Shown here: piece after piece, positions 12,225-53,474 of the stretch | Numbering within the stretch: the first letter of the stretch is position 1 | Layout of the letters: each line of letters begins with the position of its first letter | Assembly: GCF_026626705.1 (NCBI RefSeq) | Contig: NZ_JAPNKC010000001.1 | Location: 11,432,001 to 11,496,000, forward strand | From: Pyxidicoccus sp. MSG2 | GTDB lineage: Bacteria; Myxococcota; Myxococcia; Myxococcales; Myxococcaceae | DNA: 64,000 nucleotides | Direction: 5' to 3' | The notes under the pieces: model-generated | The model's input: the letters and a program-made list of their open reading frames with translations, nothing else | Told to the model about the DNA's origin: nothing | The model's database searches: none | Made by a program: the position numbers and the translations under genes

Positions 12225-12262
12225 TTACGGTGAGCGTCAAGGTTGTTGTCGCGTGAGAGGGT

Positions 12263-12565: not shown

Positions 12566-12689
12566 GTTCGGTCCGGCCAAAGAGGTCCGGACGAGAGGAG
12601 CCCGGGAAGCGCGACGGCGTGGACCGCGCGGGTTCGGCCAAACCGGTCCGGCAGGGGCTACGCCAGGCGTCAGCGTGCGGCGGTCTCGA

Positions 12690-12846
12690 CCTGGGCCGCG
12701 CGCGGTGCGCGGGTGCGCTTGGCGAGCGGCGGGTTGCGGTAGCTGTCACCCTCGATGGTGAGGACGTGGGCGTGGTGCAGCAGTCGGTCCATGGCGGCGC
12801 TGGCCAGCAGCGCGTCACCAAACAGCGGAGGCCACTTCAAGCGGCT
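12690..12846 (-). pseudogene. IS21-family IstB helper ATPase, C-terminal remnant
   Basis: The frame reads LKWPPLFGDALLASAAMDRL, then LHHAHVLTIEGDSYRNPP, the usual C-terminal end of IstB. The Walker motifs are absent and the coding match stops where the IS66 debris begins, so the gene is a fragment. Confidence 0.75.
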
Positions 12847-13151
12847 CGGCACGGCGGTCACCGGACGGATACGGGGCGCTACTCGCTGGTGGCTACCTGC
12901 GAGGCCAACGGCGTCAACTCCGAGGAGTACTTGGCCGACGTGCTGCTGCGCCTGTAGATGCATCCCAACTCGCGCATCGGCGAGCTGATACCCCAAGAGT
13001 AGAAGCGCCGCCGCGCCGCCGACCCCCTCCTGAAGCACAGTCGCTGGGAGCCAGCACGCCGGTCCACTCACGCCCAGGCTCGAGACCACCTCCGAGCACA
13101 GCCTCCGTCCGTCTTCAAACCGTCCGGCACGGCGTCCGCCGGACGGATACG
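12847..13151 (+). repeat. 27-bp near-direct repeats flanking the IS66 remnant
   Basis: Copies at 12847-12873 and 13125-13151 match at 24 of 27 positions and both end in CCGGACGGATACG. They bracket the IS66 fragment and probably represent duplicated element ends left by recombination. Confidence 0.5.
12874..13017 (+). pseudogene. IS66-family transposase (TnpC) remnant with in-frame stops
   Basis: The plus frame reads RYSLVATCEANGVNSEEYLA, DVLLRL, a TAG stop, MHPNSRIGELIPQE, then another TAG. This is the conserved C-terminus of IS66 TnpC, interrupted by two nonsense codons. It is inactive. Confidence 0.75.
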
Positions 13152-13319
13152 CGCCATTCGCGTGGGCTCCTGGGACGGAGTTTCCGTGCGGACCCAGACG
13201 GCCGACGCCCTTGCAGCACCAAAAGGGGCTCAGGAAATTTTTGCCGACCTCAACTATTTAAGTGGCTCTACGTACGTCTGCTATACTGACTATCGGCATC
13301 GAGCAGCGGGGGACTTGCC
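13018..13319. other. Region between IS66 remnant and nuclease gene
   Basis: About 300 bp without a gene. It holds the right-hand 27-bp repeat copy (13125-13151) and, near its end, the drop in GC content that marks the start of the PD-(D/E)XK gene and its putative promoter. Confidence 0.35.
13279..13287 (+). promoter_or_regulatory. Extended -10 promoter candidate for the PD-(D/E)XK gene
   Basis: TGCTATACT contains TATACT at 13282-13287 with a TGn extension, about 33 bp before the ATG. No good -35 box is spaced 16-18 bp upstream. Confidence 0.35.
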
Positions 13320-14756: not shown

Positions 14757-14788
14757 CGCGGAGAACAGTTGAGCTGAAGGAAGGATAG

Positions 14789-15095
14789 TCAGTGGCAGAA
14801 CCAGGCGGCGAGCTTCGCGAAAGGAGTCGCAGCGCGGAGCTGCCGCACCGCCTGGGCCAGCTCGTTGACGGCGCGAGGGGCGAGCTTGCGCAGCCGCCTC
14901 TTCAAGTCGGCCCACCTCAGCTTAAAATGGGGTTGAAGTCGGGGCTCTAGGTTGTCTGACCCACGCCTTTGACTTTGTGGGCGCCCAGGTTGTCCGTCAG
15001 CATCACGTCTCCAGGTCGCAGCCAGGGGTACAGCCGCTGGACCACGAAGCGCAAGAAGACGCGGCCGTTGACTGCCCACTGTGCGTCAAGCGCAA
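14789..15095 (-). pseudogene. IS630-family transposase C-terminal remnant
   Basis: The minus strand reads RFVVQRLYPWLRPGDVM, LTDNLGAHKVKGVGQTT and a stop. It resumes in another frame as WADLKRRLRKLAPRAVNELA and LRAATPFAKLAAW. Those are the second catalytic Asp region and the C-terminus of an IS630 DDE transposase, with a deletion between them. It starts 33 bp after the nuclease gene stop. Confidence 0.75.
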
Positions 15096-15220
15096 GGGAC
15101 GGCAGCCCGATTGCCACTACGCAACCGCCACCTTCAGGGACTGAGAGTGGCGGTGCCTCTGTGTCACCGCTGTTCCTCGAAGTGCAAGTCCAAGGGCAGC
15201 CATCTTGTCGAAACGGCCCA

Positions 15221-16999: not shown

Positions 17000-17408
17000 G
17001 GTTTCCCCACTCTTGGTTGATCTTCTGGCGGCAGCGCGAGCTTGCCCGCGCGGCCGACCGTTTGCGTCAAAATGCTACCGTGGCCGTAGGATATCGTAGG
17101 AAAATTCGTAGTGCCTACCGAAGCAGGGGCTTAGAGGCCGCACTTGGCAGGCTCAAAGCACGAGGGGCCGCATGCGCGGGTCGCCCCGTCTCCGCGCCTG
17201 AATGAGCACATATGCCCCCGATCCGAGGCGCTGTGCGTAAACGCGCCCGATTGCTGCTGCGCTTGGACGGCTTTCCGAGGGCTAACCCAAGGCGGTGCTG
17301 TGCGAGCGCACATCTTACTACGTGCGGGGTTGTAACGGCACTCAGGCCTTATCGTAGCTTCTTCCGCCCAAGCGCAGCGTGTCCAGATGTTGCCGCACCA
17401 GCCGCTCT
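17000..17408. other. Accessory spacer, no gene recognised
   Basis: About 400 bp of mixed composition between the DUF262 gene and the integrase remnant. Near 17080-17115 there is a run of short TAGGAT/TAGGAA and CGTAG repeats. No coding remnant or RNA was identified. Confidence 0.3.
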
Positions 17409-17661
17409 CGGAATGGCCAGCCGATAACGCGGGCTGGGCTCGTGCACTCTGCGCACTGCGAAGGTGGCGACGCAGTAGTGCCGGTTCATGCACAGCAGTA
17501 CCGCGCTCTCCCGAGTCTCCGGCGCAAGGTGGGCGTACCGCATGGTCATCTCGATGGTCGCGTGGCCCATCAGCTCCTTGATGACCTTCAGCGGGACACC
17601 GCGCACGGCGAGGTGACTGCCGTAGATATGGCGCAGGTCGTGCCAGCCGATGCGCCCCTGC
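17409..17661 (-). pseudogene. Tyrosine recombinase, C-terminal remnant
   Basis: The minus frame reads GRIGWHDLRHIYGSHLAVRG, VPLKVIKELMGHATIEMT, MRYAHLAPETRESAV. This includes the HxLRH, GH and nucleophile Tyr elements of phage-type integrases. The sequence downstream loses similarity (frameshift or decay), and the 5' side is broken by the IS630 derivative. A short piece of the same frame (RPLRALRAAGISR) continues beyond the insertion at about 18365-18405. This is probably what remains of the island integrase. Confidence 0.8.
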
Positions 17662-18364
17662 TAAGCCACCCGGGGTAAGTCCTGTCAGGGGGGCTCGCGT
17701 AGCGAGAGAACCGCGAGCCGTCCTGAGCGCTGCAGTCGATAGAGCAGCCGCACCGTGTCGGGGTAGAACGCCTCGCGCTCACGGGTCAGCATGCGGCTGA
17801 AGAAGGTTTCCTTCAAGTGCTCCCAGAAACCCTCAATCCAGTTGAGGGTTTCTGAGGTGTACGGGGGCAAGTAGAAGGGGCGTACCCAAGGCCCACTCCG
17901 CACTCAGGGCCACCTGCGTGCGCTGCTTCAGATAGGAGGCCAGCCGCCCACACGTCCAGCGACCAAAGAAGAAGTCCAACTGCCTGGGGTCGGTCTGCAC
18001 CGTCTGCATCAATACCCGCAGGTAGGTAGCAGTGACTCGAGGAGGCCGGCCAGGGCGAGGCTCATCCGCCAGGCCTTGCCAGCCCTGCTGCCGCCAGGGG
18101 AGCCGGCAGCGGTACACCGTGCGAGGAGTCACCCCCAATGTGCGCGCGATGGCGCTGGCGCTCTGGCCCTGAGCACTCCACAGGAGGATGGTTGCGCGCA
18201 ACGCTTCCCCGGCGTGCTGCTGCTGATGCAGCAGGCGCTGAAGCTTCCTGCGTTCGCGAGGCGTCAGCGTGACGCCCTGGCTCCTCCGCATGCCGCAGCG
18301 CCTTCCAATTGGATGGGCCGCAACGATATTACCCCCTGACAGGACTTACCCCGGGTGGCTTAGC
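17660..18364 (-). mobile_element. Internally deleted IS630-family element with perfect inverted repeats
   Basis: Perfect 33-nt inverted repeats lie at 17660-17692 and 18332-18364, with flanking TA dinucleotides as expected for IS630 target duplication. The element proper is about 700 bp, against about 1.1-1.2 kb for a full IS630. It is inserted in the tyrosine recombinase remnant. The transposase is present only as its two ends, so movement would need a helper element. Confidence 0.8.
17688..18291 (-). pseudogene. IS630 transposase with deleted DDE core
   Basis: The 5' part starts at ATG 18291 and gives a helix-turn-helix N-terminus (LTPRERRKLQRLLHQQQH, ARTLGVTPRTVYRCRLPW, LADEPRPGRPPRVT) up to about residue 125. 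The 3' part, in a different frame, gives the end of the catalytic domain (PPYTSETLNWIEGFWEHLKE). The middle, with both catalytic Asp residues, is missing. This explains the shortened element. Confidence 0.8.
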
Positions 18365-36337: not shown

Positions 36338-37183
36338 TCAGCGAGCCAGGGGCTCGACCTCTCCGGGGCTCAGTTCGATCTGCGCCTCCGCGCCGGACCA
36401 CACGAACGGAATGCCGGGCTGGCGGTAGAGCGTGACGGGAATGTCCCGCGAGAGCTGCGCGTGGAGCGCGGGGAGCTGGGACCAGTGCAGGCCATGCCGC
36501 GCGTGGTGGGCGGTGTGGTAGCCCAGGTTGCCCGTCACCAGGTTGTAGCCCCGATGCACGATGTTGTACGAGGCGTGGGTGTGCTCCGCGGCGTCGAGCC
36601 CCGCGTGGTGGAAGTACGTGGCCCAGACCGTCACGTAGAGGGACACGCACATGGGGAGCAGGAACACCCAGAGCGCGTTGTACCAGTCATGCCAGAAGAG
36701 CAGGCCGAGCAGCGCCACCTGCAGCGCGCCCATCCCCAGGAAGATGCGGAAGGCCCGCGGGTGCTCCCGCCCCACGCTGAACGCGCGAGGATAGGCCGTG
36801 AGCGTCGTGATGATGGAGAACTCCTGCTCGCCCATCGCTGTCCCGTCGCGGCGCTTCCAACGGGCCTCGTCCTTCTCCTGGTCGAGGTAGTTGCGATGGT
36901 GGCCGAGCACATGGTGCAGGAACCATCCATGTGACGTCGCCCCGGTCTGGAAGCCGAACACGATCTCCAGGAGCCGGTTGGGAAGGGCGTGGCGGAACAT
37001 CGACACGTGCTGGTGGTGGTGGTTCCACGCGCAGATCCACCCCTTGGGAATCACCCACAGGGCGAGCCACAGGATGGGGAGCCACCAGCTTCGCGCGGTG
37101 AAGTACACCGTCAGGTCCAGCGCGAAGGCAGTGAAGAACAGCAGGACGGGGATGCGGTCTCGGGGATGTCGGAACAGGGTCAT
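36338..37183 (-). CDS. Membrane fatty-acid desaturase
   Basis: 281 residues from ATG 37183, with GAAGAG just upstream. The three His boxes of the membrane diiron family are present: WNHHHQH (about 54), HHVLGHHRNY (about 87) and YHTAHHARHG (about 238). Four or more hydrophobic segments surround them. It should insert double bonds into, or hydroxylate, lipid chains. The start overlaps the P450 stop by 4 bp (ATGA), so the two are made together. Supplying polyunsaturated acids to the neighbouring lipoxygenases is a natural role. Confidence 0.88.
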   Translation of the reverse strand: MTLFRHPRDRIPVLLFFTAFALDLTVYFTARSWWLPILWLALWVIPKGWICAWNHHHQHVSMFRHALPNRLLEIVFGFQTGATSHGWFLHHVLGHHRNYLDQEKDEARWKRRDGTAMGEQEFSIITTLTAYPRAFSVGREHPRAFRIFLGMGALQVALLGLLFWHDWYNALWVFLLPMCVSLYVTVWATYFHHAGLDAAEHTHASYNIVHRGYNLVTGNLGYHTAHHARHGLHWSQLPALHAQLSRDIPVTLYRQPGIPFVWSGAEAQIELSPGEVEPLAR

Positions 37184-38613
37184 GCGCTCTTCGATGCGGG
37201 GGATGGACGGGCTCGGATGGAATGTTGATCGTACTCGGACTGCCGGGATCTCAACCTCCCGGTGACGCCCTTGGGAAGGACGACGCCGAAGAAGAAGCCC
37301 TCCTCGAAGGGCTCCGTCGAGTCGACTTGGACCTGGACGCGGGAGGCAATCGTCGTCAGCGCCGTCTGGAGGTACAGCATGGCGAAGTCCCCGGCCACAC
37401 AGGCGCGGGGGCCACGGCCGAACGGGAAGAAGTGGCCGCTGCCGAGCGGATCCCTTGCGGCGCCGCCGTCCAGCCAGCGCGCCGGCTCGAAGACCTCCGG
37501 GTTCGCCCAGTGGGACGGATCCCGGTGCAGGTGCTGGTTCGAAATCATGAGCGTCGTGCCAGCGGGCCACGTTACTCCCGCCAGCTGCGTCTCGGCGGAC
37601 GGCGTCCGGAGGAAGATGCGGACCGCGGGCAGGATTCGCAGGGCCTCGTAGGCGACGGCCTCGGACCACGGCGCTCCGCGCAGCCGCTCGACGCTCAGGG
37701 GCGCGTCCGCGAGCGAGGTGGCCTCGGCGGCCAGTCGCGCCTCGGCCTCGGGGTACTTCTGGAGCTGGTGGAAGGCGCCGACCAGGGTGGTGCTCGAGGA
37801 GAAGACGCCCCCGAAGAAGAACCCGCCGAGCAGGTGGGCATGCACCGTGTCGTCGAGCTCCGGCATCTCGCGCAGCGTCCACGACATCAGGTCCACCCGA
37901 TGGGGGGCCGGAGCCGCGCGCGCCGCGCGAATCTTCTCGGCGAACAGCCCGTAGAAGCGCTCCCGGGCCGCTGCGAAGCCCTTGGGCGGAGAGATGAACT
38001 TCAGTGGGAGCTTTGCCTGGATGCGCGCGTCGGCGGCCGCGGCCAGGAGCATGAAGTCGTCGTAGACCGGGGTGGGGATCTTCTCTCCCACGGTGGCCAC
38101 GCAGAAGGCATCGAAGGTCAGCCGGCGCAGCGCGGGCGTCAGGTCGATGGACGGCTCGCTCAGCAGGGCCTCCACCGATTCGGCCACGGCGGCCCGCAGC
38201 GGTTCCACCTGGGCGGCCCGCCAGGCGTGGGTCCAGGGCTGTGCCAGCGGGTCCATCCCATGCTTGCGCGACCAGTCCTCGCCCTGCTTCGCGATGAAGG
38301 GCGTGTCGTCCGTGGTGGAGTGACGGATCTGCTCGCCGATGTTGCCCTTCTCGAACTCCAGCCGGCGGGTTTCCAGCACCTCCTCGATGAGCGCGGGGTC
38401 GTTGAGCACCAGCGCCGGGCCAGGCCCCATCCAGATGAGGGTGCGGCCTCCGTACGTGCGCCCGTAGCGCGCGCAGACGTCCCACGGCGGGGCGCCGAGG
38501 AAGTCTCCGATGTTGCCCAGCAGGCCGGGTGGGGGCCCGGGCAGGCTCGCGTAGGCCTTGCGCCGCGCGCCGAAGAACAGGTTGAACAGACCGCGGGAAA
38601 GCAGGTTGGGCAA
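37180..38613 (-). CDS. Cytochrome P450 with atypical I-helix
   Basis: 477 residues. The heme ligand loop is FFPFGRGPRACVAG with Cys near residue 400; the ExxR pair is in YEALRILPAVR (about 323). The I-helix reads GGFFFGGVFSSSTT, so the usual acid is Phe and the Thr is Ser. Ordinary monooxygenases use that acid-alcohol pair to activate O2; its loss is typical of P450s that act on hydroperoxides or peroxides. The N-terminus has a short hydrophobic part and PGPPPGLLGNI hinge, so it is probably soluble or peripherally bound. It sits between a desaturase (4-bp overlap) and a lipoxygenase (11 bp gap). Confidence 0.9.
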   Translation of the reverse strand: MPNLLSRGLFNLFFGARRKAYASLPGPPPGLLGNIGDFLGAPPWDVCARYGRTYGGRTLIWMGPGPALVLNDPALIEEVLETRRLEFEKGNIGEQIRHSTTDDTPFIAKQGEDWSRKHGMDPLAQPWTHAWRAAQVEPLRAAVAESVEALLSEPSIDLTPALRRLTFDAFCVATVGEKIPTPVYDDFMLLAAAADARIQAKLPLKFISPPKGFAAARERFYGLFAEKIRAARAAPAPHRVDLMSWTLREMPELDDTVHAHLLGGFFFGGVFSSSTTLVGAFHQLQKYPEAEARLAAEATSLADAPLSVERLRGAPWSEAVAYEALRILPAVRIFLRTPSAETQLAGVTWPAGTTLMISNQHLHRDPSHWANPEVFEPARWLDGGAARDPLGSGHFFPFGRGPRACVAGDFAMLYLQTALTTIASRVQVQVDSTEPFEEGFFFGVVLPKGVTGRLRSRQSEYDQHSIRARPSPASKSA

Positions 38614-38624
38614 GGGCGTGCGCC

Positions 38625-40652
38625 TCAGACGGTGATGCCGCAGGGAATCCTGTCGGGACGCAGGACGGTGTAGGGGACCTCTGACTTCGCGTTGCGCGCC
38701 TTCACCACCTCGAGCTGGGTGCGCAGCCGATCCTGGAACCTGTTGCGGATGGCCGCGAGCTCCGGCTCCTGGAAGTAGTCCTCACGCCAGCCGCTCTCGT
38801 GGAGGAGGTACTCCTCGTCGTCACCGAAGCTGGACAGCGCCCGGCCGATGGCGACCTGCCAGAGCGTCTGGGACTTGCTGGGAATCATCGCCGCGATGTC
38901 CTCCGGGCCGATGACGCCCTTCTGCCTCGGCGGCTCCCGGCGCAGGCAGAGCGGGGCGTTGGGCACGAAGGCGTAGTGCTCGTACTGGAGGTAGTTCACC
39001 GCGGCGTGGTGGACGCTGACCGTGAAGAGGACCGTGGTCAGGATGTCCACGAGGTCATCGACGCGCCGGAGCTCCCGGCAGGGCAGCTTGTCGACAGGCA
39101 GCCCCCGCTCGGTGAGGTCCGTCCACCAGTGCCGCAGCTCGGCGTCAGCCGCGAGGTCCGCGTCGGACCGGTAGAAGTGCCGGAGCGTGCCACCGACATA
39201 CTCCTCGAAGGCGTCCCACAGCGGCAGGGCGTCGTCCCGGTAGGGGTAGTAGGGGAGGACGGCGGGGTCGAGGACGCCGCGGCGCTCGAGGTCCAGGCGG
39301 GGCTTGTTGTCGGACAGCTTCCAGCGCTGGAAGCCCTTCTTGCCCAGCTGCAGGTGCCCCTTGTCGGGGCCGCCGGTGGCGATGAAGTCGTCGAAGACGC
39401 CGCCCTCGGAGAGCAGGCCCTTTCGCGCGCCCTCGTTGATGGCGAGCGTGTAGCGGAAGTGGCGGCGGAGCAGCTTGTAGACGGGGTGCGGGTCCGGGAG
39501 GTTTCGCATCGTCGCCATGACGAACGGCTCCGCCACGAAGTGGGTCCGCAGCGCGTGCCCCACCATCTGGTGGGTGTTCCCCTCGCTGCAACGGACGGAG
39601 ACCTTCGCCGCCAGCCAGTCGTATTCGCCGTCATTGGGCGTGAAGACCGGGGCGGTCTCCGCGTCCCTCCCGAGCTGGATGGCGATGGGCCGCAATTGGC
39701 GCGTGTCGTCCAGGTACAGCAGGCACCGGGACGCGGGCGCCCAGCGCCGCTCCTCGACGCCGTCCTCGCCAACCTTCCGGAACATCCGGATGCCCTCGAG
39801 GATTTCGAAGTCGATCAGGAACAGGCGCTTCGCCTCGAAGGCGCGCGCCAGCGTGTCGCCCGGTGCCAGCACGCCGTGGACGTCCGCCTCTGACAGGGGC
39901 ATGCCCGCTGGCAGGTGGGTGATGGACTGGATGTGGAGGGGATTGATGCCCTGGACGGCCTGCCGCGCGAACTCCAGGTCGTCCTTCCAGCGCTGGGCGA
40001 GCTGGGGCATCTCGATGCCCTTGAAGAAGTCGAAGATGTCGACGAGCCCGTTCCACGCCTTGGACAGCACGGGCAGGTGCAGCTTGATGGACGCCAGCGT
40101 CTTGGCGATGACGACCTCGTAGCTGCCCTCGCTCAGGCCCCGGTACAGCTCGTCCTTCGGAAGTGGTCGCTCCTTGCTGATGTCGAGCGCGCCGGGAAGC
40201 CCGGCGGTCGCCTCGGCGGGGCGCCAGGGGTACATGCGCTGGCGGGCCTGGAGTTGCTCGTGACGGGCCCGGGCCTCGCGCTCGTTCTTCACCTGCTGCG
40301 GCAGCCTCGCCGAGCCCTCGAGGACTTCCGTCGTCGAGCCGCCCGGGACCCACCGGTAGAAGGGGAAGAACCAGCTCCTGCCGCCCGACGTCACCCAGAC
40401 GGTGTCGAGGAGCCAGTCGCCCGCGACGCCTCCGGAGTTGCTGAACCGCAGCAGCACCAGCTCGCCCACATCCTCCGCGACGACGGTGTAGACGTCCTCG
40501 GCACCGGCCTCGAAGTCATTGTGGAAGCGCTTGTCCAGCGTGTGCGGACCGCTCTCTCCCCGCGTACCGACCAGCACGACGGAAATGGTGGAGTCCGTCC
40601 CCGCTCCGAGTCGCGAGTCCGTGCGAATCGTGAGCTTGTATTCGACAGTCAT
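38625..40652 (-). CDS. Lipoxygenase with N-terminal PLAT-like domain
   Basis: 675 residues from ATG 40652, chosen for GAGGG upstream; a start at 40712 would add 20 unsupported residues. Residues 1-115 look like a PLAT beta-sandwich (EYKLTIRTDSRLGAGTDS, then FFPFYRWVP). The catalytic domain holds HQMVGHALRTHFVAEPF (about 361), DPHPVYKLLRRH, and VHHAAVNYLQYEHYAF (about 546), which supply three His and an Asn to the iron. The protein ends PCGITV, so the C-terminal carboxylate ligand is on Val rather than the usual Ile. It should add O2 to polyunsaturated fatty acids. Last bases are 11 bp from the P450 start. Confidence 0.9.
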   Translation of the reverse strand: MTVEYKLTIRTDSRLGAGTDSTISVVLVGTRGESGPHTLDKRFHNDFEAGAEDVYTVVAEDVGELVLLRFSNSGGVAGDWLLDTVWVTSGGRSWFFPFYRWVPGGSTTEVLEGSARLPQQVKNEREARARHEQLQARQRMYPWRPAEATAGLPGALDISKERPLPKDELYRGLSEGSYEVVIAKTLASIKLHLPVLSKAWNGLVDIFDFFKGIEMPQLAQRWKDDLEFARQAVQGINPLHIQSITHLPAGMPLSEADVHGVLAPGDTLARAFEAKRLFLIDFEILEGIRMFRKVGEDGVEERRWAPASRCLLYLDDTRQLRPIAIQLGRDAETAPVFTPNDGEYDWLAAKVSVRCSEGNTHQMVGHALRTHFVAEPFVMATMRNLPDPHPVYKLLRRHFRYTLAINEGARKGLLSEGGVFDDFIATGGPDKGHLQLGKKGFQRWKLSDNKPRLDLERRGVLDPAVLPYYPYRDDALPLWDAFEEYVGGTLRHFYRSDADLAADAELRHWWTDLTERGLPVDKLPCRELRRVDDLVDILTTVLFTVSVHHAAVNYLQYEHYAFVPNAPLCLRREPPRQKGVIGPEDIAAMIPSKSQTLWQVAIGRALSSFGDDEEYLLHESGWREDYFQEPELAAIRNRFQDRLRTQLEVVKARNAKSEVPYTVLRPDRIPCGITV

Positions 40653-40729
40653 GGAACCCTCGGCCTGGCGCGGCCAGAAGGTAGGTCGGACAAAGTGAAC
40701 ACTGCAAGCCATGGTACTCTCGATGGAAA

Positions 40730-42793
40730 ATGCTCACCGCGCTGCGACGCCTGATGGAGTCCCTGGGGGTGGGGGGACGGGGGAAGGGCAACGAGGTCCT
40801 CGAGCCGGAGGAGCTTGCCCGGTGGTACTCCGGCCTGGCGCTCGAGGAGCGGTTGGCCCTCAGCCGCGAGCTGGCACCCCGCGTCCGCGCGCCCCGCCCC
40901 AAGAGGGAGCAGGCGAGCCTTCCCGCTGTCGCCGTGGGGCGCATCGTCTTCCAGCAGGACGGCCCGCACGGCCCCATGCCCCTGCATCACCTCAAGGTCG
41001 AGCTCTGGGACCGGGACTTCGGCGCTCCCGACGACTTCCTGGGCGAGTGCTTCACGGACTCCGAAGGCGGCTTCTCCATCCGTTATGACCCGGAGGATGC
41101 GGGCGCTGGAGACCTGCCGGACCTGGAGGTCCGCTTCTTCGAGCCCCAGCACACCTTCCGCGAGGATGGCCGGGTGGTGGAGACCTGGCGGCGCATCGGC
41201 TCGGAGCAGGGGCCTGACAACCATGGTGGGCTCCATCACGACTTCGGCACCCTGCGGCTGCCCTACTGGGAATATGCGCCGGGGACACCGCTGGCCCGGT
41301 TGTTCGTGACGGAGGAGGGGACGCCGCCGACGGCGTATGCCCCGGGCCGGGCCCTCGCGATGCTGAAGGCCGTCGCCCCCATCGAGCTCGTCAAGCGCCA
41401 GCACCTGCTCCAGGCCCGCCTGGGACACGCGCCGGGCCTGGACCGCATCCAGGCCGACTACCCGGAGTCGATGACGGTCCGCATGGAGCGGGAGGCGCCT
41501 GGCTCCACCCGGAGTGACGCCTTCTTCGGAGAGCGGCTGCTCAACGGCATGTTCTCCACCATCCTGGACCGCGACCCCGAGGTCCCCGGGGATGCCCACG
41601 CGTTCCGGCTCTACCTTCCCTGGAACGCGTACGAGCAGGACGGCATCCACTGTCTGCCCGACGTGGACGTGAGGCTGCGGCTGGTGGAAGGCCGGCTCAT
41701 GCCGGTGCGCATCATCCTGGGGATGCGCGAGCCCGGCGCGACGGCGCCCGGCTCACCCGTGACACGCCGGACCTTCACGCCCGCGGACGGCGCGGACTGG
41801 GAGGCGGCCAAGCGCATGGCCCGGGTGAGCGCGACGTTGGACACGGAGCTGGGCAACCACCTGGGGCAGTGCCACTTCAACGTCGAGCAGTACGCTATCG
41901 CGGCCCACCGGAACCTGCGGCACAACCCCCTTCGCTGGCTGCTGATGCCCCACCTGCGCGAGGTGGTCCTCATCAATCACGCGGCCGATGGGTTCCTCGT
42001 CGGGCCGACGGGTTACATCACCCGGGCCAGCGCGCTGACCGAGCGGGCCATCGAGTCGCGACTGCAACATCTGATGGGCAGCTACGATTGGCGGGGCTTC
42101 GCGCCTGCTCCGCCCGTGTGCGAGGGGCATCGGTATGCCCAGGCCGCGGGACTGTTCTGGAAGCTGCTCGGCGAGCACGTCGACGCCTTCTTCGCGGAGC
42201 ACGGGGCCGAGGTGGAGGCGCGGTGGATCGAGGTGCGGCGTTTTTCGGACGACCTCGTGGCCCACTCCGCGCCCGCCTTCGTGTGCCGGTACCTTCGGGC
42301 GACGGTCCCGGGGAAGGACGCTCCCTGGTTCGTGCGCTCGGAGCGAATGGACCTGGATGAGAAGGCCGTGGAGCCGACGCCGAAGGCAGTCAGCGCGGTG
42401 ACCCGGACCGACGTGCCCCAGCCAGGGGAGATGGACGCGCTCAAGCAGCTCTGCCGCTACGTCATCTACTTCGCGACCTTCCGGCATGCGTGGGCCAACA
42501 ACCTCCAGTGGGAGGACGCTGGCGAGGTGCTCTACACCTGTCTGGGATTGCGCTGGGGAAAGGGCGGGGCGTTGTCGACCGAGGCCGACCTGGATGTCGC
42601 GCCTCCGCCCGACGCGGCCACGGAGATGCTGTGGATTTCGTGGATGCTCTCCAAGACGAACTACGGACTCCTCCTGGCCAACGAAGAGGCCGACGTGCAC
42701 CCGCGCTTCGTGGAATTGCTGCGGACCCACGCCTCCGAGTTCGCCGCGCTCGGCCTGGATATCCGGACGGTCAGCTCGCGCATCAACATCTAG
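40730..42793 (+). CDS. Second lipoxygenase-family protein, divergent
   Basis: 687 residues. Residues about 60-140 form a transthyretin/CNA-B-like beta domain (LHHLKVELWDRDFGAPDD, FLGECFTDSEGGFS) instead of PLAT. The catalytic half keeps the iron ligands: HLGQCHFNVEQYAIA (about 377), HNPLRWLLMPHLREV, FRHAWANNLQWEDAGE with His and Asn four residues apart (about 586), and a C-terminal Ile (SSRINI). Overall similarity to the first lipoxygenase is low, so this is a distinct branch and not a recent duplicate. It is transcribed divergently, with only 77 bp between the two starts, implying shared control. Confidence 0.8.
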   Translation: MLTALRRLMESLGVGGRGKGNEVLEPEELARWYSGLALEERLALSRELAPRVRAPRPKREQASLPAVAVGRIVFQQDGPHGPMPLHHLKVELWDRDFGAPDDFLGECFTDSEGGFSIRYDPEDAGAGDLPDLEVRFFEPQHTFREDGRVVETWRRIGSEQGPDNHGGLHHDFGTLRLPYWEYAPGTPLARLFVTEEGTPPTAYAPGRALAMLKAVAPIELVKRQHLLQARLGHAPGLDRIQADYPESMTVRMEREAPGSTRSDAFFGERLLNGMFSTILDRDPEVPGDAHAFRLYLPWNAYEQDGIHCLPDVDVRLRLVEGRLMPVRIILGMREPGATAPGSPVTRRTFTPADGADWEAAKRMARVSATLDTELGNHLGQCHFNVEQYAIAAHRNLRHNPLRWLLMPHLREVVLINHAADGFLVGPTGYITRASALTERAIESRLQHLMGSYDWRGFAPAPPVCEGHRYAQAAGLFWKLLGEHVDAFFAEHGAEVEARWIEVRRFSDDLVAHSAPAFVCRYLRATVPGKDAPWFVRSERMDLDEKAVEPTPKAVSAVTRTDVPQPGEMDALKQLCRYVIYFATFRHAWANNLQWEDAGEVLYTCLGLRWGKGGALSTEADLDVAPPPDAATEMLWISWMLSKTNYGLLLANEEADVHPRFVELLRTHASEFAALGLDIRTVSSRINI

Positions 42794-46490: not shown

Positions 46491-49400
46491 ATGCCGCATC
46501 CCGTTGAGTCGCAGTCCCACCACGCCACGGGCCTGGAGTCGAGCAGCGGGCCCCTCTCGTACAACCAGCAAGCACTGTGGTTCGCCTCCAAGCTGGACCC
46601 CATCGCGTACAACCTCGCGTACGGGTTTCGACTCAGGGGCGCGTTGGACCCGGAGCTGCTGAAGCGCGCGCTGGCGCTGCTCGTGGCTCGGCACCCCGTG
46701 CTCCGCACGACCTTCTCCGAGACGGAGCGCGGGCCGCACCGGGTCCTCCATGGCCGGATGGACTTCGAGTTCCAGCACGTCGAGGCGGCGCACCTCGACG
46801 AGGCCGCGATGCTCCAGCGGCTGTATTCCGACGCGGCCCGCCCCTACGACCTCCAGCACGGGCCGGTGCTCCGAAGCGCGCTCTACACTCGCGGCCCGGG
46901 CGAGCACGTGCTGCTGCTGGCCTGTCACCACCTCTCGCTGGACGGCGGTTCGTTGGGCCTGCTGCTCCAGGACCTCCAGCGCAGCTACGTCGCCGTCGCC
47001 AGCGGTCGCGAAGTCGACCTCGGGCCCCCGCCCACGCGGGACTATGGCGAGTTCGTGCAGTGGCAGTCGGAGTGGCTGACCAGCGTCGAAGGTGAACGGG
47101 CGCGCACGTGGTGGCGCGAGCAGCTCGCGGGATGCACGCCGGTGCTGAACCTGCCGACGGACCGTCCCCGGTCGGCCCGGCAGAGCTTTCGTCAGCACAC
47201 CCACGTGATGACGCTGGACGAGCCCCTGGCCCAGGCGCTCGCGGCGCTGGCGAAGGGGGAGGGCACCAGCTTCTATGCGCTGCTGCTCGCGGCCTTCCAG
47301 GCCCTGCTCCATCGGCACAGCGGACAGGAGGACCTGCTGGTGGGAGTCCCGTCCTCGGGGCGCAGCGAGGAGTGGCACTCGCGGGTGGTGGGGTATCTCG
47401 TCAACACGCTCGCCGTGCGCTCCCGGGCTTCGGCGGACGCGTCCTTCCGGTCCTTCCTCCAGAACACCGCGCGCACGCTGCGCGAGGCGCTGGCCCATGG
47501 CAGCTACCCGCTCCCCAAGGTGATTGAAGAGCTGAAGCCGCCGCGCGACGCGGGCCGCTCGCCGCTCGTGCAGGCGACGTTCACCCAGATGCCGCGCCTG
47601 CGGCTCGATGCGTCCTCGGCGCCGCCCCCGTTCGAGCTCGAGCGGCTCACCGCCTCCAACGTCGGACTGGCCGGCGATCTCTCCGTCCACGTCCACGCCA
47701 CCCGCGACTCCGGGACGCAACTGCTCTGGGCGGTGAATGCCGATGTCTTCGAGCCTGCCACCGTGGAGCGCCTCGCCGCGCGCTACGTCACGCTGCTGGA
47801 GTCCCTCCTCACCGGGCTCGACCAGCCCCTCGCCGCGCTGCGCCTGCTCCCGCCGCAGGAGGAGCACCAGCTCGTCGTGGAGTGGAATGCGACCGCGACG
47901 GACGTCGAGTCGGAGGTCTGTCTCCACGAGCTGTTCTCCCGGCAGGTGGCGCGGACGCCGGACGCCGTCGCGCTCCTGTTCGAGCGCGAGGCGCTGACGT
48001 ACCGGGAGCTGGACGCGCGCGCCAACCACCTCGCCCATCGCCTGCGGCGGCTCGGAGTAGGGCCCGAGGTCCGCGTGGGGCTGTGCGTGGAGCGCTCGCC
48101 GGAGCTGATTGTCGGGCTCCTCGGCGTGCTGAAGGCGGGGGGCGCCTACGTCCCACTCGACCCGGCCTATCCCTCCGAGCGCCTCGCCTTCATGGTTGCG
48201 GACGCGCGGCTCACGGCAATCGTGACGCAGCGCTCGCTCGAGGATCGGCTGCCAGCGAGTGACGCCGCACGGCTCTTCATCGGTGCGGGAGGGGAGGACT
48301 TGACGGGCCCGTGCGACGCACCCGACAGCGGCGTGGGCCCTGGCAATGCGGCCTATGTCATCTACACCTCGGGTTCGACGGGCCGGCCCAAGGGCGTCAC
48401 CGTCGAGCACCGCCAGGTCAGCAACCTGCTCGCGACACAGCCCCGGGTGTTTCCCCTTGGTACAGGGGACACCATGCTCCAGTTCGCCTCGGTGAGCTTC
48501 GACATGGCGGTGCAGGAGATCTTCTCGCCGCTCGTCTCGGGGTCCGCCCTCTGCCTCGCGCGGCGGGAGTCGCTGGTGCCCGGACCGGAGCTCGCGAGCC
48601 TCCTGCGAGAGCGGCGCATCTCCGCCGCCATCCTCTCCCCGTCAGCGCTCGCGGCGCTGCCCGCGGGGGAGTATCCGGCCCTGAAGACCATCATGGTGGG
48701 CGGCGAGCCCAGCCCGGAGCCCCTCGTGGCGCGCTGGAGCGCGGGCCGCCGCTACATCAACGGCTATGGGCCCACCGAGGCCACCATCTACGCCACGTGC
48801 GCGCCGTGCACCTCGGGCGCGCCGGTGACGCTGGGCCGGCCCATCGGCAACGTGCGGGTGTACCTGCTGGACGCACGGCTCCAGCCGGTGCCGCGTGGGG
48901 TGGCGGGTGAGCTGTACATCGGCGGCGCCGGAGTGGCACGTGGCTACCTCGGTCGCCCCGAGCTCACCGCCGAGCGCTTCATCCCGGACTGCTTCAGCGA
49001 CACGTTCGGGGGCCGCCTGTACCGGACCGGCGACCTCGCGCGCCAGCTGCCCGATGGCCGGCTCGAGTTCCTCGGACGGGTGGACCATCAGGTGAAGCTG
49101 CGCGGCTTCCGCATCGAGCTCGGAGAGATTGAGTCCGGGCTGCGCGTGCACCCGGACGTGCGCGATGTCGTGGTGCTCGCCCGTGAGGAGCCCTCCGGTG
49201 GGAAGTTCCTCGTGGCCTACACGGTGGCTCACGAGGGCCGCGAGCTGGAGGAGGTCGGGCTGCGGGCCTTCCTCAAGCAGTCCCTGCCCGAGTACATGGT
49301 GCCCTCCACCTTCGTCGCGTGCGAGCGCCTGCCGCTGACGTCCAACGGGAAGGTGGACCGCGCGGCGCTGCTCGCCATCCCCGTGCAGCGGGTGCGCGTC

Positions 49401-52400
49401 CCCCGCTCTCGGCCGCCCGCGAGCGAGGCCGAGCGCACCGTCGCGCGCATCTGGCAGGACGTCCTCAATCTCGACCAGGTCGGCGCGACGGAAAGCTTCT
49501 TCGACCTCGGTGGACATTCGCTGCTGCTGACGCAGGTGCGGGCCCGGGTGGGGCAGGCCTTCGGTCGCGAGCCGTCCATGGTGGAGCTGTTCGAGCACGT
49601 CACCGTCGAGTCCCTCGCGGCGCACCTCTCCGCCCAGCCCGCGCCGGAGCTCCCGAGCGCCAGGGCGCTGCCCCCGGCGGAAGGGGGACATGCGGTGGCC
49701 ATCATCGGCCTGGCAGGACAGTTCCCGGGGGCGAAGGACCTGGAGCAGTTCTGGCGCAACCTCGCCGCGGGCGTGGAGTCCATCTCGCAACTGAGTGACG
49801 AAGCGCTGGCCGGGGCCGGCGTCCCCGCCGCGCTGTCTGGCCGCTCCGGGTATGTGCGGGCCAAGGGCGTGCTGGAGGGTGCGGAGTTGTTCGACGCGGA
49901 CTTCTTCGGCGTCAACCCGCGCGAGGCGAGCCAGATGGACCCGCAGCAGCGGCGCTTCCTCGAGTGCGCGTGGGAGGCCCTGGAGGACTCGGGCTATCCG
50001 CCCCAGTCGCTCGGCGCCTCCGTCGGTGTCTTCGCCACCTCCAGCGCGACGAGCTACCAGCCGCTCCCGGCCTCCGAGGAGCCCGCCGACACCTACCAGC
50101 TCAAGCTGGGCCTGGAGAGCGACTTCCTGGCGACCCGCGTCTCCTACAAGCTGGACCTGCGTGGGCCGGCGATGACGGTGCGCACGGGCTGCTCGGGCTC
50201 GCTCGTGGCGGTGCACCTCGCCTGCCGTAGCGTGCTCTCTGGCGAGTGCGACCTGGCGCTTGCGGGAGGCGTGGCCATCTCGGTGCCGCTGGCGGGCGGG
50301 TACGTCTACCAGCCCGGGATGATTCTCTCGCCCGACGGCCACTGCCGGGCCTTCGACGCACGGGCCGGGGGCACGGTGCGGGGCAACGGCGTGGGCGCCG
50401 TGGTGCTCAAGCGGCTCGACCGGGCCCTGGCCGATGGGGACACCGTCCACGCGGTGATTCGCGGCTCCGCGCTCAACAACGACGGCGCGGGCAAGCTCGG
50501 CTACACCGCGCCGAGCATCACCGGACAGACCGAGGTCATCCGCAGAGCACACGACGCGGCTGGTGTCCTGCCCCACGAAGTCTCGTTCGTGGAGACCCAT
50601 GGGACAGGCACGCCGTTGGGGGACCCCGTCGAGGTCGCCGCACTGGCGAAGGCCTTCCAGCGTGGCACCGGCCCCCGGGGCTCCTGCGTGCTGGGCGCCA
50701 CCAAGCCCAACATCGGTCACCTGGACTCGGCGGCGGGAATCGCCGGGCTCATCAAGACGGTGCTTTGCCTGCGCCATCGCCAGCTCCCGCCCGTCGTGCA
50801 CTTCGAGCAGCCGAATCCCGCGCTGGGGCTGGGCGGGACGCCCTTCTCGGTCAACGCGCGGCTCTCGGACTGGACTCCGCCCGACGGCCTGCCGCGCATC
50901 GCCGGGGTGAGCTCCTTCGGCATCGGCGGCACCAATGCCCACGTGGTGGTGGCCGAGGCCCCGGTCATTCCCTCCGTGGAGGAGACGGAAGGCTGGCGGG
51001 TGCTGCCCCTGTCCGCGCGCACTCCCGCGGCGCTGGCCGCGACGGCGAGGCGCCTGGGGGAGGCCCTGGCCTCGCGCACGGAGGTGTCTCTGGTCGACGT
51101 GGCTTACACGCTCCAGCAGGGGAGAACCGCCTTCGAACATCGCACGGCGCTCGTCTGCCGGGACGTGCCGGGCGCGAGGCGGGACCTGGAGCGGTTGGCG
51201 CGTGAGCTCTCGGAAGGGGAGCGCTCCGCGAGCGTGGTTCGGAGCAGGGAAGTGGTGTTCCTGTTCCCCGGTCAGGGCGCGCAGTACCCCGGCATGGCGC
51301 GCGGGCTCTACGCCGCTCACGCCGTCTTCCGTGCCGAGGTGGACCGGTGCTCCGAGCTGCTCCTGCCGCACCTGGGCCAGGACGTGCGCGAGTTGCTCCT
51401 CCTGGAGGACGCCTCCGACGAGCGCATCCACCAGACGGTGCTCGCGCAGCCCTGCCTCTTCGTCATCGAGTACGCGCTGGCCCGCCTCTGGATGTCCCTG
51501 GGGCTGACCCCGACGGCGATGGTGGGCCACAGCCTTGGCGAGTACGTGGCCGCCTGTCTCGCCGGTGTGTTCTCACTGGAGGACGCGCTGGGGCTCATCT
51601 GCGCCCGGGGCCGGCTGATGCAGGCCGCGCCCGCCGGAGCCATGCTCGCCGTCGGGCTGGATGCCGACGCCCTGCGCCCGCTGTTCGACGAGCACCTCTC
51701 CATCGCGGTGTACAACGCGCCCGCGCAGACGGTGGTGGCGGGCACGGTGGAAGCCATCTCCGGGTTGCAGCAGCGGCTGGAAGCGCGCGGCATCGTGTGC
51801 AGGCGCCTGCGGACCTCGCACGCCTACCACTCGCCCATGATGGAGCCGGCGCTGGAGCCGTTCGCCGAGCAGGTGCGGCGCATCCCGCTCGCGGCACCGG
51901 GCATTCCCCTCGTCTCGAACGTCACGGGGACATGGATGACGGCGTCGCAAGCGATGGACCCGGATTACTGGGTCCAGCACCTGCGCCAGCCCGTGCGCTT
52001 CACCCAGGGACTGACGTGTCTACTGGAGGGGGCAGAGCGGTTGTTGTTGGAGGTGGGCCCGGGCCAGGCCCTGGGCGGACTCGTCCGCCAGTGCTCGGGA
52101 TTCGGCGCGTCCCATGCCGTGCTTTCGTCGCTTCCCAACCCGCGCACCGGGGCCGACGACACGGAGTTCTTCCTGGCCCAGGTGGGCGAGGCCTGGAGCC
52201 GCGGGGCGACGGTCGACTGGCGGGGGCTGACTCCGGGCGAGCGGGGCCGGCGCGTCTCTCTACCGACGTACCCGTTCGAGCGGCGACGCTACTGGGCCGA
52301 GCAGGCGTCGCCGCACGCCGTCCCTTCGCTGCCGCCCAACCGCCAGCATATCGAAGTGCCAGCGCCAGTCCTTCCGGCGACCGCGAGTGCTTCGCCCACG

Positions 52401-53474
52401 GAAGCAGACCCTACGCACGAAGCCCTGACGCGCATCTGGCGCGAGCTGCTGGGCATCAGCACGATGGGCCACCACGATGACTTCTTCGACCTGGGTGGCC
52501 ACTCGCTGCTTGCCGTGCAGCTCGGCACCCGGATTCGCGAGACGTTCCAAATCGACTTTCCCCAGCAGCGGGTGCTCGAGCACCGGACGATTGCGCGGCT
52601 GGGCTCGTTCATCCAGGAGGCCACGCGCGCGACACCCTCCGCGACACCCTCCAGGGACTCGTCGCTGCTCGTCGAGCTGAACCGGGGAGATGCCCGAAGG
52701 CGTCCGCTCTTCCTGCTCCACCCGGTGGGCGGCACCGTCTTCACGTACCAGTCGCTGGCGCGCATGCTCGATCCGGGCTTGCCCATCTACGGCGTGCGTG
52801 CGCGAGGGCTGGAGCCCGGGGAGGCCCATGCGGGGAGCATCGAGAGCATGGCGGCCCTGTACCTGGAGGCCGTGCGCACCCGACAGCCGTCCGGGCCCTA
52901 CCTGCTCGCGGGGCACTCCTTCGGGGGCGTGGTGGCCTACGAGATGGCCCAGCAACTGCTCGCGCGGCGTGAGCAGGTGGAGCAACTCGTGCTCATGGAC
53001 TCCCCCGGTCCAGGGCAGATGCCGGTCAGCCTGGGCTCGCATGAGGAGATACAGGAATACTTCCGCCGCATGGCGCCCGAGCTGTTCCGCGAGCTCTTCC
53101 TGAGCAACACCGGGAGCGAGGGCTCTCTGGAGACCTTGCTGCCTCGCAGCGAGGTGTTCCTCAAGGTGTTCCAGGAGAACGCCGCGGCCATGTTCGCGTA
53201 CGCCCCGCGCCCATACCCGGGCCGGCTCGTCTTCTTCCATGCCCGGGAGCGTGACACCACCAACCCACCGCATCCCGAGCTGGCGTGGATTCCGCTCGCC
53301 ACCGAGGGCGTCGAGGTCCACGTCGTGCCCGGCAACCACGTCACGATGCTGGCGGAGCCCCACGTCAGAAGCCTCGCGAAGAAGCTGCGCGGTGCGCTGG
53401 AAGAGCGACGGGAGTTCCCCGTTCCCCCGCCCGTCTCGGCGGAGGCGCGCTCGGAGCTCGCGAGGACAGGGTAG
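46491..53474 (+). CDS. Hybrid NRPS-PKS: C-A-PCP-KS-AT-ACP-TE
   Basis: 2,327 residues from ATG 46491, with GAGGG nearby. Order by residue: condensation domain about 20-470 (ACHHLSLDGG); adenylation about 475-960 (YVIYTSGSTGRPKGV, NGYGPTEATIYAT, YRTGDLARQLPDG, SNGKVDR); carrier about 980-1050 (DLGGHSLLL); ketosynthase about 1065-1490 with Cys in TGCSGSLVAVHLAC and His in VETHGTGTPLGDP and NIGHLDSAAG; acyltransferase about 1585-1865 (GHSLGEYVAA, HAYHSPMM, malonyl-like); carrier about 1975-2045; thioesterase about 2070-2310 (LAGHSFGG). No reductive domains, so a beta-keto acyl-amino acid or a cyclised product such as a tetramate is expected. Substrate of the adenylation domain is not assignable, although Asp of the alpha-amine contact is present. 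The convergent DHA2 pump may export it. Confidence 0.92.
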   Translation: MPHPVESQSHHATGLESSSGPLSYNQQALWFASKLDPIAYNLAYGFRLRGALDPELLKRALALLVARHPVLRTTFSETERGPHRVLHGRMDFEFQHVEAAHLDEAAMLQRLYSDAARPYDLQHGPVLRSALYTRGPGEHVLLLACHHLSLDGGSLGLLLQDLQRSYVAVASGREVDLGPPPTRDYGEFVQWQSEWLTSVEGERARTWWREQLAGCTPVLNLPTDRPRSARQSFRQHTHVMTLDEPLAQALAALAKGEGTSFYALLLAAFQALLHRHSGQEDLLVGVPSSGRSEEWHSRVVGYLVNTLAVRSRASADASFRSFLQNTARTLREALAHGSYPLPKVIEELKPPRDAGRSPLVQATFTQMPRLRLDASSAPPPFELERLTASNVGLAGDLSVHVHATRDSGTQLLWAVNADVFEPATVERLAARYVTLLESLLTGLDQPLAALRLLPPQEEHQLVVEWNATATDVESEVCLHELFSRQVARTPDAVALLFEREALTYRELDARANHLAHRLRRLGVGPEVRVGLCVERSPELIVGLLGVLKAGGAYVPLDPAYPSERLAFMVADARLTAIVTQRSLEDRLPASDAARLFIGAGGEDLTGPCDAPDSGVGPGNAAYVIYTSGSTGRPKGVTVEHRQVSNLLATQPRVFPLGTGDTMLQFASVSFDMAVQEIFSPLVSGSALCLARRESLVPGPELASLLRERRISAAILSPSALAALPAGEYPALKTIMVGGEPSPEPLVARWSAGRRYINGYGPTEATIYATCAPCTSGAPVTLGRPIGNVRVYLLDARLQPVPRGVAGELYIGGAGVARGYLGRPELTAERFIPDCFSDTFGGRLYRTGDLARQLPDGRLEFLGRVDHQVKLRGFRIELGEIESGLRVHPDVRDVVVLAREEPSGGKFLVAYTVAHEGRELEEVGLRAFLKQSLPEYMVPSTFVACERLPLTSNGKVDRAALLAIPVQRVRVPRSRPPASEAERTVARIWQDVLNLDQVGATESFFDLGGHSLLLTQVRARVGQAFGREPSMVELFEHVTVESLAAHLSAQPAPELPSARALPPAEGGHAVAIIGLAGQFPGAKDLEQFWRNLAAGVESISQLSDEALAGAGVPAALSGRSGYVRAKGVLEGAELFDADFFGVNPREASQMDPQQRRFLECAWEALEDSGYPPQSLGASVGVFATSSATSYQPLPASEEPADTYQLKLGLESDFLATRVSYKLDLRGPAMTVRTGCSGSLVAVHLACRSVLSGECDLALAGGVAISVPLAGGYVYQPGMILSPDGHCRAFDARAGGTVRGNGVGAVVLKRLDRALADGDTVHAVIRGSALNNDGAGKLGYTAPSITGQTEVIRRAHDAAGVLPHEVSFVETHGTGTPLGDPVEVAALAKAFQRGTGPRGSCVLGATKPNIGHLDSAAGIAGLIKTVLCLRHRQLPPVVHFEQPNPALGLGGTPFSVNARLSDWTPPDGLPRIAGVSSFGIGGTNAHVVVAEAPVIPSVEETEGWRVLPLSARTPAALAATARRLGEALASRTEVSLVDVAYTLQQGRTAFEHRTALVCRDVPGARRDLERLARELSEGERSASVVRSREVVFLFPGQGAQYPGMARGLYAAHAVFRAEVDRCSELLLPHLGQDVRELLLLEDASDERIHQTVLAQPCLFVIEYALARLWMSLGLTPTAMVGHSLGEYVAACLAGVFSLEDALGLICARGRLMQAAPAGAMLAVGLDADALRPLFDEHLSIAVYNAPAQTVVAGTVEAISGLQQRLEARGIVCRRLRTSHAYHSPMMEPALEPFAEQVRRIPLAAPGIPLVSNVTGTWMTASQAMDPDYWVQHLRQPVRFTQGLTCLLEGAERLLLEVGPGQALGGLVRQCSGFGASHAVLSSLPNPRTGADDTEFFLAQVGEAWSRGATVDWRGLTPGERGRRVSLPTYPFERRRYWAEQASPHAVPSLPPNRQHIEVPAPVLPATASASPTEADPTHEALTRIWRELLGISTMGHHDDFFDLGGHSLLAVQLGTRIRETFQIDFPQQRVLEHRTIARLGSFIQEATRATPSATPSRDSSLLVELNRGDARRRPLFLLHPVGGTVFTYQSLARMLDPGLPIYGVRARGLEPGEAHAGSIESMAALYLEAVRTRQPSGPYLLAGHSFGGVVAYEMAQQLLARREQVEQLVLMDSPGPGQMPVSLGSHEEIQEYFRRMAPELFRELFLSNTGSEGSLETLLPRSEVFLKVFQENAAAMFAYAPRPYPGRLVFFHARERDTTNPPHPELAWIPLATEGVEVHVVPGNHVTMLAEPHVRSLAKKLRGALEERREFPVPPPVSAEARSELARTG

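What the first reader, a model, noticed from the sequence alone, without database searches (positions are those of the whole stretch)
36338..42793. Bacterial oxylipin-like locus: desaturase, P450, two lipoxygenases
Desaturase and P450 overlap by 4 bp, the first lipoxygenase lies 11 bp away and the second diverges after 77 bp. Together they can make polyunsaturated acids, hydroperoxidise them and convert the hydroperoxides, the logic of plant and animal oxylipin synthesis. Two unlike lipoxygenases next to a hydroperoxide-type P450 is rare in bacteria and may give signals or defence lipids for predation or development.
Basis: partly seen in the sequence, partly recalled or inferred. Interest (0 to 1): 0.82.

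Follow-up and report, generated by a model that had tools for sequence, protein, structure and literature searches.

The report
Myxobacterial lipoxygenase–P450 oxylipin gene unit
A predatory soil bacterium carries two fatty-acid-oxidising lipoxygenases and an unusual P450 as one gene unit that is kept together across dozens of related species, so it probably makes hormone-like oxidised lipids by a route that resembles those of plants and animals.

Summary
Both lipoxygenases (LOX) keep all metal ligands and are orthologues of Myxococcus enzymes already shown to be active (PMC6612559, PMC5760719), so the LOX pair is known. What I did not find in print is the P450. It lies directly downstream of LOX1 in 46 of 47 orthologous loci besides the window, including Sorangium cellulosum So ce26; LOX2 diverges from LOX1 in 38 of 47 and sits elsewhere in others. 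In 145 genomes the P450 orthologue occurs in 45 of 46 with LOX1 and 0 of 99 without. Its I-helix has lost the catalytic acid (Phe-Ser for Glu-Thr) in 48 of 48 orthologues; 46 of 48 other myxobacterial P450s keep it. This fits a hydroperoxide-using P450, though not CYP74 itself: its heme loop has ordinary spacing. The desaturase is a looser partner, adjacent in 22 of 47 loci and often a separate gene. None of the 53 LOX-carrying genomes scored as having a PfaA-type PUFA synthase, so prey lipids are a plausible substrate. P450 chemistry is inferred, not shown.

The parts
36338..37183 (-). Membrane fatty-acid desaturase (PF00487), 281 aa; optional member of the unit
   Evidence: (E 7.3e-26), translation with three His-rich boxes; adjacent to the P450 in 22 of 47 loci; separate elsewhere.
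37180..38613 (-). Cytochrome P450, 477 aa, TTG start; overlaps the desaturase by 4 bp (ATGA)
   Evidence: PF00067 E 1.3e-44; E323, R326 and C405 invariant in 47 of 47.
37798..37812 (-). I-helix segment GGVFS (residues 268-272) where other P450s have (A/G)Gx(E)T: acid replaced by Phe
   Evidence: Phe-Ser in 48 of 48 orthologues, acid in 46 of 48 background P450s.
38625..40652 (-). LOX1: PLAT + lipoxygenase, 675 aa; orthologue of the M. fulvus arachidonate 12S-lipoxygenase MF-LOX1
   Evidence: ligands H366, H371, H549, N553 and C-terminal V/I in 47 of 47; assignment from lengths, determinants and identities in PMC6612559.
40653..40729 (.). 77-bp divergent LOX1/LOX2 promoter region, with conserved block CAAGCCATGGTA at 40705-40716
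   Evidence: Block with at most 1 mismatch in 26 of 39 divergent intergenic regions (the motif was read from the same related sequences, so this is descriptive). No sigma-70-like site by the simple scan.
40730..42793 (+). LOX2: lipoxygenase without PLAT match, 687 aa; type of M. xanthus MX-LOX2 / M. fulvus MF-LOX2
   Evidence: ligands H377, H382, H586, N590 and C-terminal I687 in 44 of 44 rows that cover them.

Best explanation
This is a lipoxygenase oxylipin unit of myxobacteria. LOX1 and LOX2 insert O2 into polyunsaturated fatty acids, each at its own position, giving hydroperoxides (shown for orthologues, inferred here). The P450, made from the same transcript as LOX1, takes the LOX hydroperoxide as both substrate and oxygen source, cleaves the O-O bond homolytically at its heme without O2 or a redox partner, and turns it into an allene oxide, aldehyde or epoxyalcohol (inferred). 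In Myxococcus, Pyxidicoccus, Citreicoccus and genus g9 a desaturase has been added behind the P450; it may tune the acyl chain before or after oxygenation but is not needed in Corallococcus or Archangium. The C20-C22 substrate is probably taken from eukaryotic prey or debris, as LOX carriers do not score for a PfaA-type PUFA synthase (inferred).
For: LOX catalytic sites intact in 47 of 47 LOX1 and 44 of 44 LOX2 rows. Orthologues active: MF-LOX1 gives 12S (n-9) products and prefers C20-C22 acids (PMC6612559, abstract and passages); MXAN_1744 and MXAN_1745 give 11- and 12-HpETE (PMC5760719, passages). LOX1-P450 adjacency in 46 of 47 loci, gaps 14-57 bp except one truncated second copy (140 bp). 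Co-occurrence 45 of 46 with LOX1, 0 of 99 without. Flanking genes differ between the window and M. xanthus while the unit stays. LOX2 is kept near the unit through different arrangements (downstream of the P450 in L127, beyond a hydrolase gene in So ce26, L081). Acid lost from the I-helix in 48 of 48 orthologues against 2 of 48 background P450s. CYP74s need neither O2 nor redox partner and differ from monooxygenases in just this I-helix region (PMC10813956, passages). Gene-tree distances of LOX1 and P450 correlate (Pearson 0.93, 44 shared taxa), as expected for co-inheritance.
Against: No P450 activity data. Two of 48 background P450s also lack the acid (they keep Thr), and Ser at the alcohol position occurs in 7 of 48, so the motif is suggestive only. 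The heme loop is ordinary, unlike CYP74. The M. xanthus LOXs already convert hydroperoxides to hepoxilins themselves (PMC5760719), so a second hydroperoxide enzyme is not strictly needed. G076 has LOX1 without the P450; G048 has a second P450 copy (57%) without a LOX beside it. The structure model is weak (pLDDT 64) and its best matches are monooxygenases (P450 BM3, CYP97). The phylum search found no orthologue outside this family in 195 genomes; So ce26 came from another collection.
Confidence: 0.6

Rival explanations
1. The P450 is an ordinary O2- and NADPH-dependent monooxygenase with a variant I-helix that hydroxylates or epoxidises fatty acids or the LOX products, after or before the lipoxygenase step.
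For: Canonical heme loop and ExxR; closest solved chains by sequence and fold are monooxygenases, among them the fatty-acid hydroxylase P450 BM3; background P450s L181 and L184 lack the acid too.
Against: Invariant Phe at the acid site in 48 of 48 orthologues. No redox-partner family in the seven neighbouring proteins scanned besides the P450.
Confidence: 0.27
2. The unit detoxifies: LOXs and P450 consume or reduce polyunsaturated lipids and their peroxides from prey, with no signal product.
For: LOX1 orthologue lacks marked membrane-oxygenase activity and prefers free C20-C22 acids (PMC6612559); carriers do not score for a PfaA synthase, so the substrate is likely foreign.
Against: Two position-specific lipoxygenases kept for long times is an odd way to destroy lipids; hepoxilin and trioxilin products were reported in M. 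xanthus culture fed arachidonate (PMC5760719).
Confidence: 0.2
3. The desaturase is the pathway's first step and supplies the polyunsaturated substrate.
For: 4-bp overlap with the P450 here; adjacent in 22 of 47 loci.
Against: Separate gene in Corallococcus and Archangium; present in G077 and G079 without LOX; one of 24 PF00487 matches in G000.
Confidence: 0.15

Closest known systems
Myxococcus xanthus MXAN_1744/MXAN_1745 and M. fulvus MF-LOX1/MF-LOX2 lipoxygenase pair
   Same: Same two lipoxygenase types. The M. xanthus genome AM003 in my set carries the whole four-gene locus (L068, L091).
   Different: The papers (passages only) treat the LOXs alone. The P450s tried in M. xanthus were MXAN_0683 and MXAN_2304 (no activity), not the LOX neighbour. 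That the neighbour is MXAN_1743 is my inference from gene order.
Plant LOX - CYP74 cascade (AOS, HPL, DES, EAS), and the bacterial CYP74-clan enzyme of Methylobacterium nodulans
   Same: LOX hydroperoxide passed to a P450; I-helix without the monooxygenase signature.
   Different: No nine-residue heme-loop insert here; ordinary FxxGxRxC; gene fused by operon to the LOX.
Coral AOS-LOX fusion (catalase-related AOS with 8R-LOX)
   Same: LOX1's best solved match is this LOX domain (2fnq, E 2.4e-111); LOX and hydroperoxide enzyme are made together.
   Different: The partner there is catalase-related, not a P450.
Pseudomonas aeruginosa oleate diol synthase genes PA2077/PA2078
   Same: Bacterial gene pair: a fatty-acid dioxygenase plus an enzyme that converts the hydroperoxide (PMC4496055, abstract start in listing).
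   Different: Both are di-heme cytochrome c peroxidase-like, not LOX and P450.

Membership tests
Lipoxygenase (PF00305) | Domain match over the curated cut-off | tested here: met
   LOX1 248.5 and LOX2 34.7 bits against 23.6.
Lipoxygenase (PF00305) | Five metal ligands: His, His, His, Asn, C-terminal carboxylate of Ile/Val | tested here: met
   LOX1 HHHN-V 44 and HHHN-I 3 of 47; LOX2 HHHN-I 44 of 44.
Lipoxygenase (PF00305) | Dioxygenation of 1,4-pentadiene fatty acids | not testable with these tools
   Shown for orthologues only (PMC6612559, PMC5760719).
Cytochrome P450 (PF00067) | Domain match, ExxR and heme Cys motif | tested here: met
   153.2 bits; E323, R326, F398, R403, C405 in 47 of 47.
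P450 monooxygenase | I-helix acid-alcohol pair | tested here: not met
   Phe-Ser in 48 of 48 orthologues; acid in 46 of 48 background rows.
CYP74 family / clan | Nine extra residues in the heme-binding domain (PMC10813956) | tested here: not met
   FxxGxRxC spacing as in background P450s.
CYP74 family / clan | Over 40% identity to CYP74, or clan tree placement | tested here: inconclusive
   No CYP74 among the 60 best of 299 and 328 solved-chain matches shown; lists capped, no CYP74 sequence at hand.
CYP74-like function | Turns over fatty-acid hydroperoxide without O2 or reductant | not testable with these tools
   Needs purified enzyme.
Fatty-acid desaturase (PF00487) | Domain match over cut-off | tested here: met
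   91.9 bits against 29.7; regiospecificity not tested.

The most novel reading that the evidence does not exclude
A bacterial P450 lineage outside CYP74 has independently evolved to convert lipoxygenase hydroperoxides, giving predatory myxobacteria a two-branch oxylipin pathway (two LOX regiospecificities feeding one P450) that converts prey C20-C22 lipids into signals or toxins.
Probability: 0.4. Interest if true: 0.82.

Novelty: new variant of a known kind. Interest (0 to 1): 0.58.

Why it matters
M. xanthus is a genetic model, its two lipoxygenases are purified and characterised, and hepoxilins were reported from its cultures, yet no in vivo role was stated in the passages I saw. A conserved third enzyme next to them gives one concrete test of what bacterial oxylipins are for. 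A non-CYP74 hydroperoxide P450 would be a further independent origin of a chemistry known from plants, corals and mammals.

Tried and rejected
Structure route: the P450 model from 22 sequences is poor (pLDDT 64.2, heme-loop region under 50). VIA-align put it on P450 BM3 and CYP97 (Z about 31, rmsd 5-6): it says 'P450 fold' and no more. No CYP74 appeared in the rows shown there, which proves nothing.

Mobile-element idea: no relative of the P450 in plasmids at E 1e-40 or in viral contigs.

Endogenous PUFA synthase as substrate source: TIGR02813 over its cut-off in 10 of 145 genomes, none among the 53 LOX carriers. Only two candidates per genome were scored there, and carriers and non-carriers belong to different genera, so this is indicative only.

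LOX family elsewhere: a P450 35% identical lies about 5 kb from a PLAT-less LOX in G074 and G075 (L131, L132), on the opposite strand with other genes between; I do not count it as the same unit.

Belonging to the neighbouring NRPS-PKS cluster (from 46491): rejected, because flanking genes of the unit in M. xanthus and other genera matched none of the window's flanks in the set compared.

Published enzymology conflicts: LOX1's M. fulvus orthologue is a 12S-LOX (PMC6612559), while MXAN_1744, which I take to be the LOX1 orthologue, is called 11-LOX (PMC5760719); the mapping of locus tags to LOX1/LOX2 is inferred from consecutive RefSeq numbers and was not checked by sequence.

Rows dropped: LOX1 count leaves out L128 (truncated), L131 and L132 (about 30% identical); LOX2 count leaves one partial row (L121); the P450 47-row count leaves out L130, L131, L132, and the 48-row count only L131 and L132. 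Background P450s: of 50 loci fetched (L141-L190), L164 (an orthologue) and L170 (no heme-motif match by my pattern) were left out, and two further frames of L161; 48 rows, 47 distinct (L168 and L175 are one gene), 30 of the loci being top-scoring hits from eight genomes.

Full report
The observation. All four genes are present as described. The desaturase (36338-37183, -) and the P450 (37180-38613, -) overlap by 4 bp; LOX1 (38625-40652, -) ends 11 bp before the P450 start; LOX2 (40730-42793, +) diverges after 77 bp. Pfam supports each: FA_desaturase 7.3e-26, p450 1.3e-44, PLAT and Lipoxygenase 1.1e-18 and 2e-73, Lipoxygenase 9.8e-9. The weak LOX2 Pfam match is not a sign of decay: LOX2 matches the solved lipoxygenase 5ek8 (a cyanobacterial enzyme, source organism recalled) over residues 69-687 at 1.1e-139. 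LOX1's best solved relative is the lipoxygenase part of the allene oxide synthase-lipoxygenase protein 2fnq (2.4e-111), then human 5-lipoxygenase. The genome is 13.34 Mb in two contigs; PF00305 finds only these two LOX genes in it. The nearest named relative among the loci fetched is Pyxidicoccus caerfyrddinensis (P450 90%).

The lipoxygenases are complete and of known kinds. Metal ligands are His366, His371, His549, Asn553 and the C-terminal Val/Ile in 47 of 47 LOX1 rows, and His377, His382, His586, Asn590 and Ile687 in 44 of 44 LOX2 rows that cover them. PMC6612559 (passages) describes MF-LOX1 (676 aa) and MF-LOX2 (689 aa) of M. fulvus, about 21% identical to each other and about 86% identical to MX-LOX1 and MX-LOX2 of M. 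xanthus; MF-LOX1 makes 12S (n-9) hydroperoxides and prefers C20-C22 acids. Its specificity residues Gly359, Ala410, Phe424, Ile425 correspond, with a shift of one, to Gly358, Ala409, Phe423, Ile424 here (Gly 47, Ala 46, Phe 30, Ile 47 of 47). PMC5760719 (passages) reports that MXAN_1745 and MXAN_1744 make 12- and 11-HpETE and go on to hepoxilins. So the LOX pair itself is known.

Synteny. The P450 has orthologues (60-92% identical) in 45 of the 145 genomes held for the order; all 45 are among the 46 genomes with a LOX1-type gene, and none is among the 99 others (recount). The exception is G076, LOX1 without P450. Over the 47 orthologous P450 loci other than the window (46 from the order, two of them second copies in G048 and G067, plus So ce26), LOX1 is directly upstream on the same strand in 46; LOX2 diverges from LOX1 in 38; the desaturase follows in 22 (one locus, G103, ends at the contig end, so its desaturase cannot be judged). 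Where LOX2 is not divergent it is downstream of the P450 on the same strand (G073, L127), beyond an alpha/beta-hydrolase gene (Sorangium cellulosum So ce26, order Polyangiales; L081), elsewhere in the genome (G045, G048, G055, G056), or not found (G046). Compared with M. xanthus and six other loci, no flanking gene of the window's unit was shared. In a further search of 195 genomes of the phylum no orthologue lay outside this family. Gene-tree distances agree best between LOX1 and P450 (Pearson 0.93; LOX1-LOX2 0.89; LOX2-P450 0.90; 44 taxa), though shared descent of the species alone would also give high values.

The P450. It has the full P450 signature (ExxR, FxxGxRxC; 47 of 47), but its I-helix reads GG(V/A/T)FS where monooxygenases have (A/G)Gx(D/E)T. 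Phe-Ser is found in 48 of 48 orthologues, including So ce26 and the lone second copy in G048; in a background of 48 rows of other P450s from the same family, the acid is Glu in 46, Thr in 1 and Leu in 1; the alcohol is Thr in 39, Ser in 7. So loss of the acid is unusual and fixed, while Ser is not unusual. The distant relatives near a different LOX in G074 and G075 have also lost the acid (Thr-Ser). PMC10813956 (passages) states that CYP74 enzymes need no O2 or redox partner, differ from monooxygenases in the I-helix groove and carry nine extra residues in the heme domain; a clan member exists in Methylobacterium nodulans. The heme loop here is ordinary, so this is not a CYP74, but it may work like one. 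The structural model is too weak to add more than the fold.

The desaturase. It is present in 64 of 145 genomes at E <= 1e-20, in Corallococcus, Archangium and genus g7 away from the LOX unit, and in G077 and G079 without any LOX match. It was therefore linked to the unit in some lineages only. G000 has 24 PF00487 matches, two of which lie in one frame. The claim that these four genes form a complete PUFA-to-oxylipin pathway is not borne out.

Substrate source. A PfaA-type PUFA synthase passes its cut-off in 10 of 145 genomes and in 0 of the 53 LOX carriers (only two candidates per genome were scored). With an orthologue that prefers C20-C22 acids, prey lipids are the likeliest source; C18 acids made by desaturases are not excluded.

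Regulation. The LOX1/LOX2 intergenic region has a block close to CAAGCC(A/G)TG(G/C)TA, with no or one mismatch in 26 of 39 divergent regions. As the motif was read from these related sequences, it is a lead for a shared promoter or operator, no more. The simple sigma-70 scan found nothing.

Literature. Searches for lipoxygenase+P450+myxobacteria (8 papers), MXAN_1743 (none), lipoxygenase+bacteria+P450+gene cluster+oxylipin (83 papers, 20 listed), CYP74+proteobacteria and others (2 papers) and Myxococcus+lipoxygenase+hydroperoxide+P450 (10 papers) showed, in their titles and abstract starts, none on this P450. The library is open-access only, so subscription papers may hold more.

Verdict. A real, conserved unit: two known lipoxygenases plus a P450 with a monooxygenase-unlike active-site helix for which I found no published test. 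The most likely mechanism is hydroperoxide conversion by the P450 (0.6); it is inferred, and one anaerobic assay would decide it.

Noticed in passing
G051-G053, G130-G134, G136, G139 versus 53 LOX carriers: PfaA-type PUFA synthase (over cut-off in 10 of 145 genomes) and lipoxygenase do not occur in the same held genome of the order.
   Followed up: partly
40705-40716: Conserved block CAAGCC(A/G)TG(G/C)TA in the LOX1/LOX2 divergent intergenic region of many Myxococcus and Corallococcus loci.
   Followed up: partly
L131 and L132: A 35%-identical P450, also without the I-helix acid, about 5 kb from a PLAT-less lipoxygenase, with two genes weakly like peptidase C25 between.
   Followed up: partly
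L128 and L130: Second copies: a truncated LOX1 + P450 pair in Corallococcus G067, and a 57% P450 without LOX in G048.
   Followed up: no
L081:11456-12664: In Sorangium cellulosum So ce26 an alpha/beta-hydrolase gene lies between the P450 and LOX2; it could release fatty acids.
   Followed up: no
46491-53474: Large NRPS-PKS-like open reading frame (2327 aa) downstream, followed by other genes; seen in the translation only.
   Followed up: no
12001-18000: Stretch of lower GC (0.54-0.62) in a window otherwise near 0.69; possibly acquired DNA.
   Followed up: no
PMC6612559: The text gives the first iron cluster as His376 + His372 and swaps a WP number in one sentence; the spacing does not fit the HxxxxH motif seen in LOX1.
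   Followed up: no
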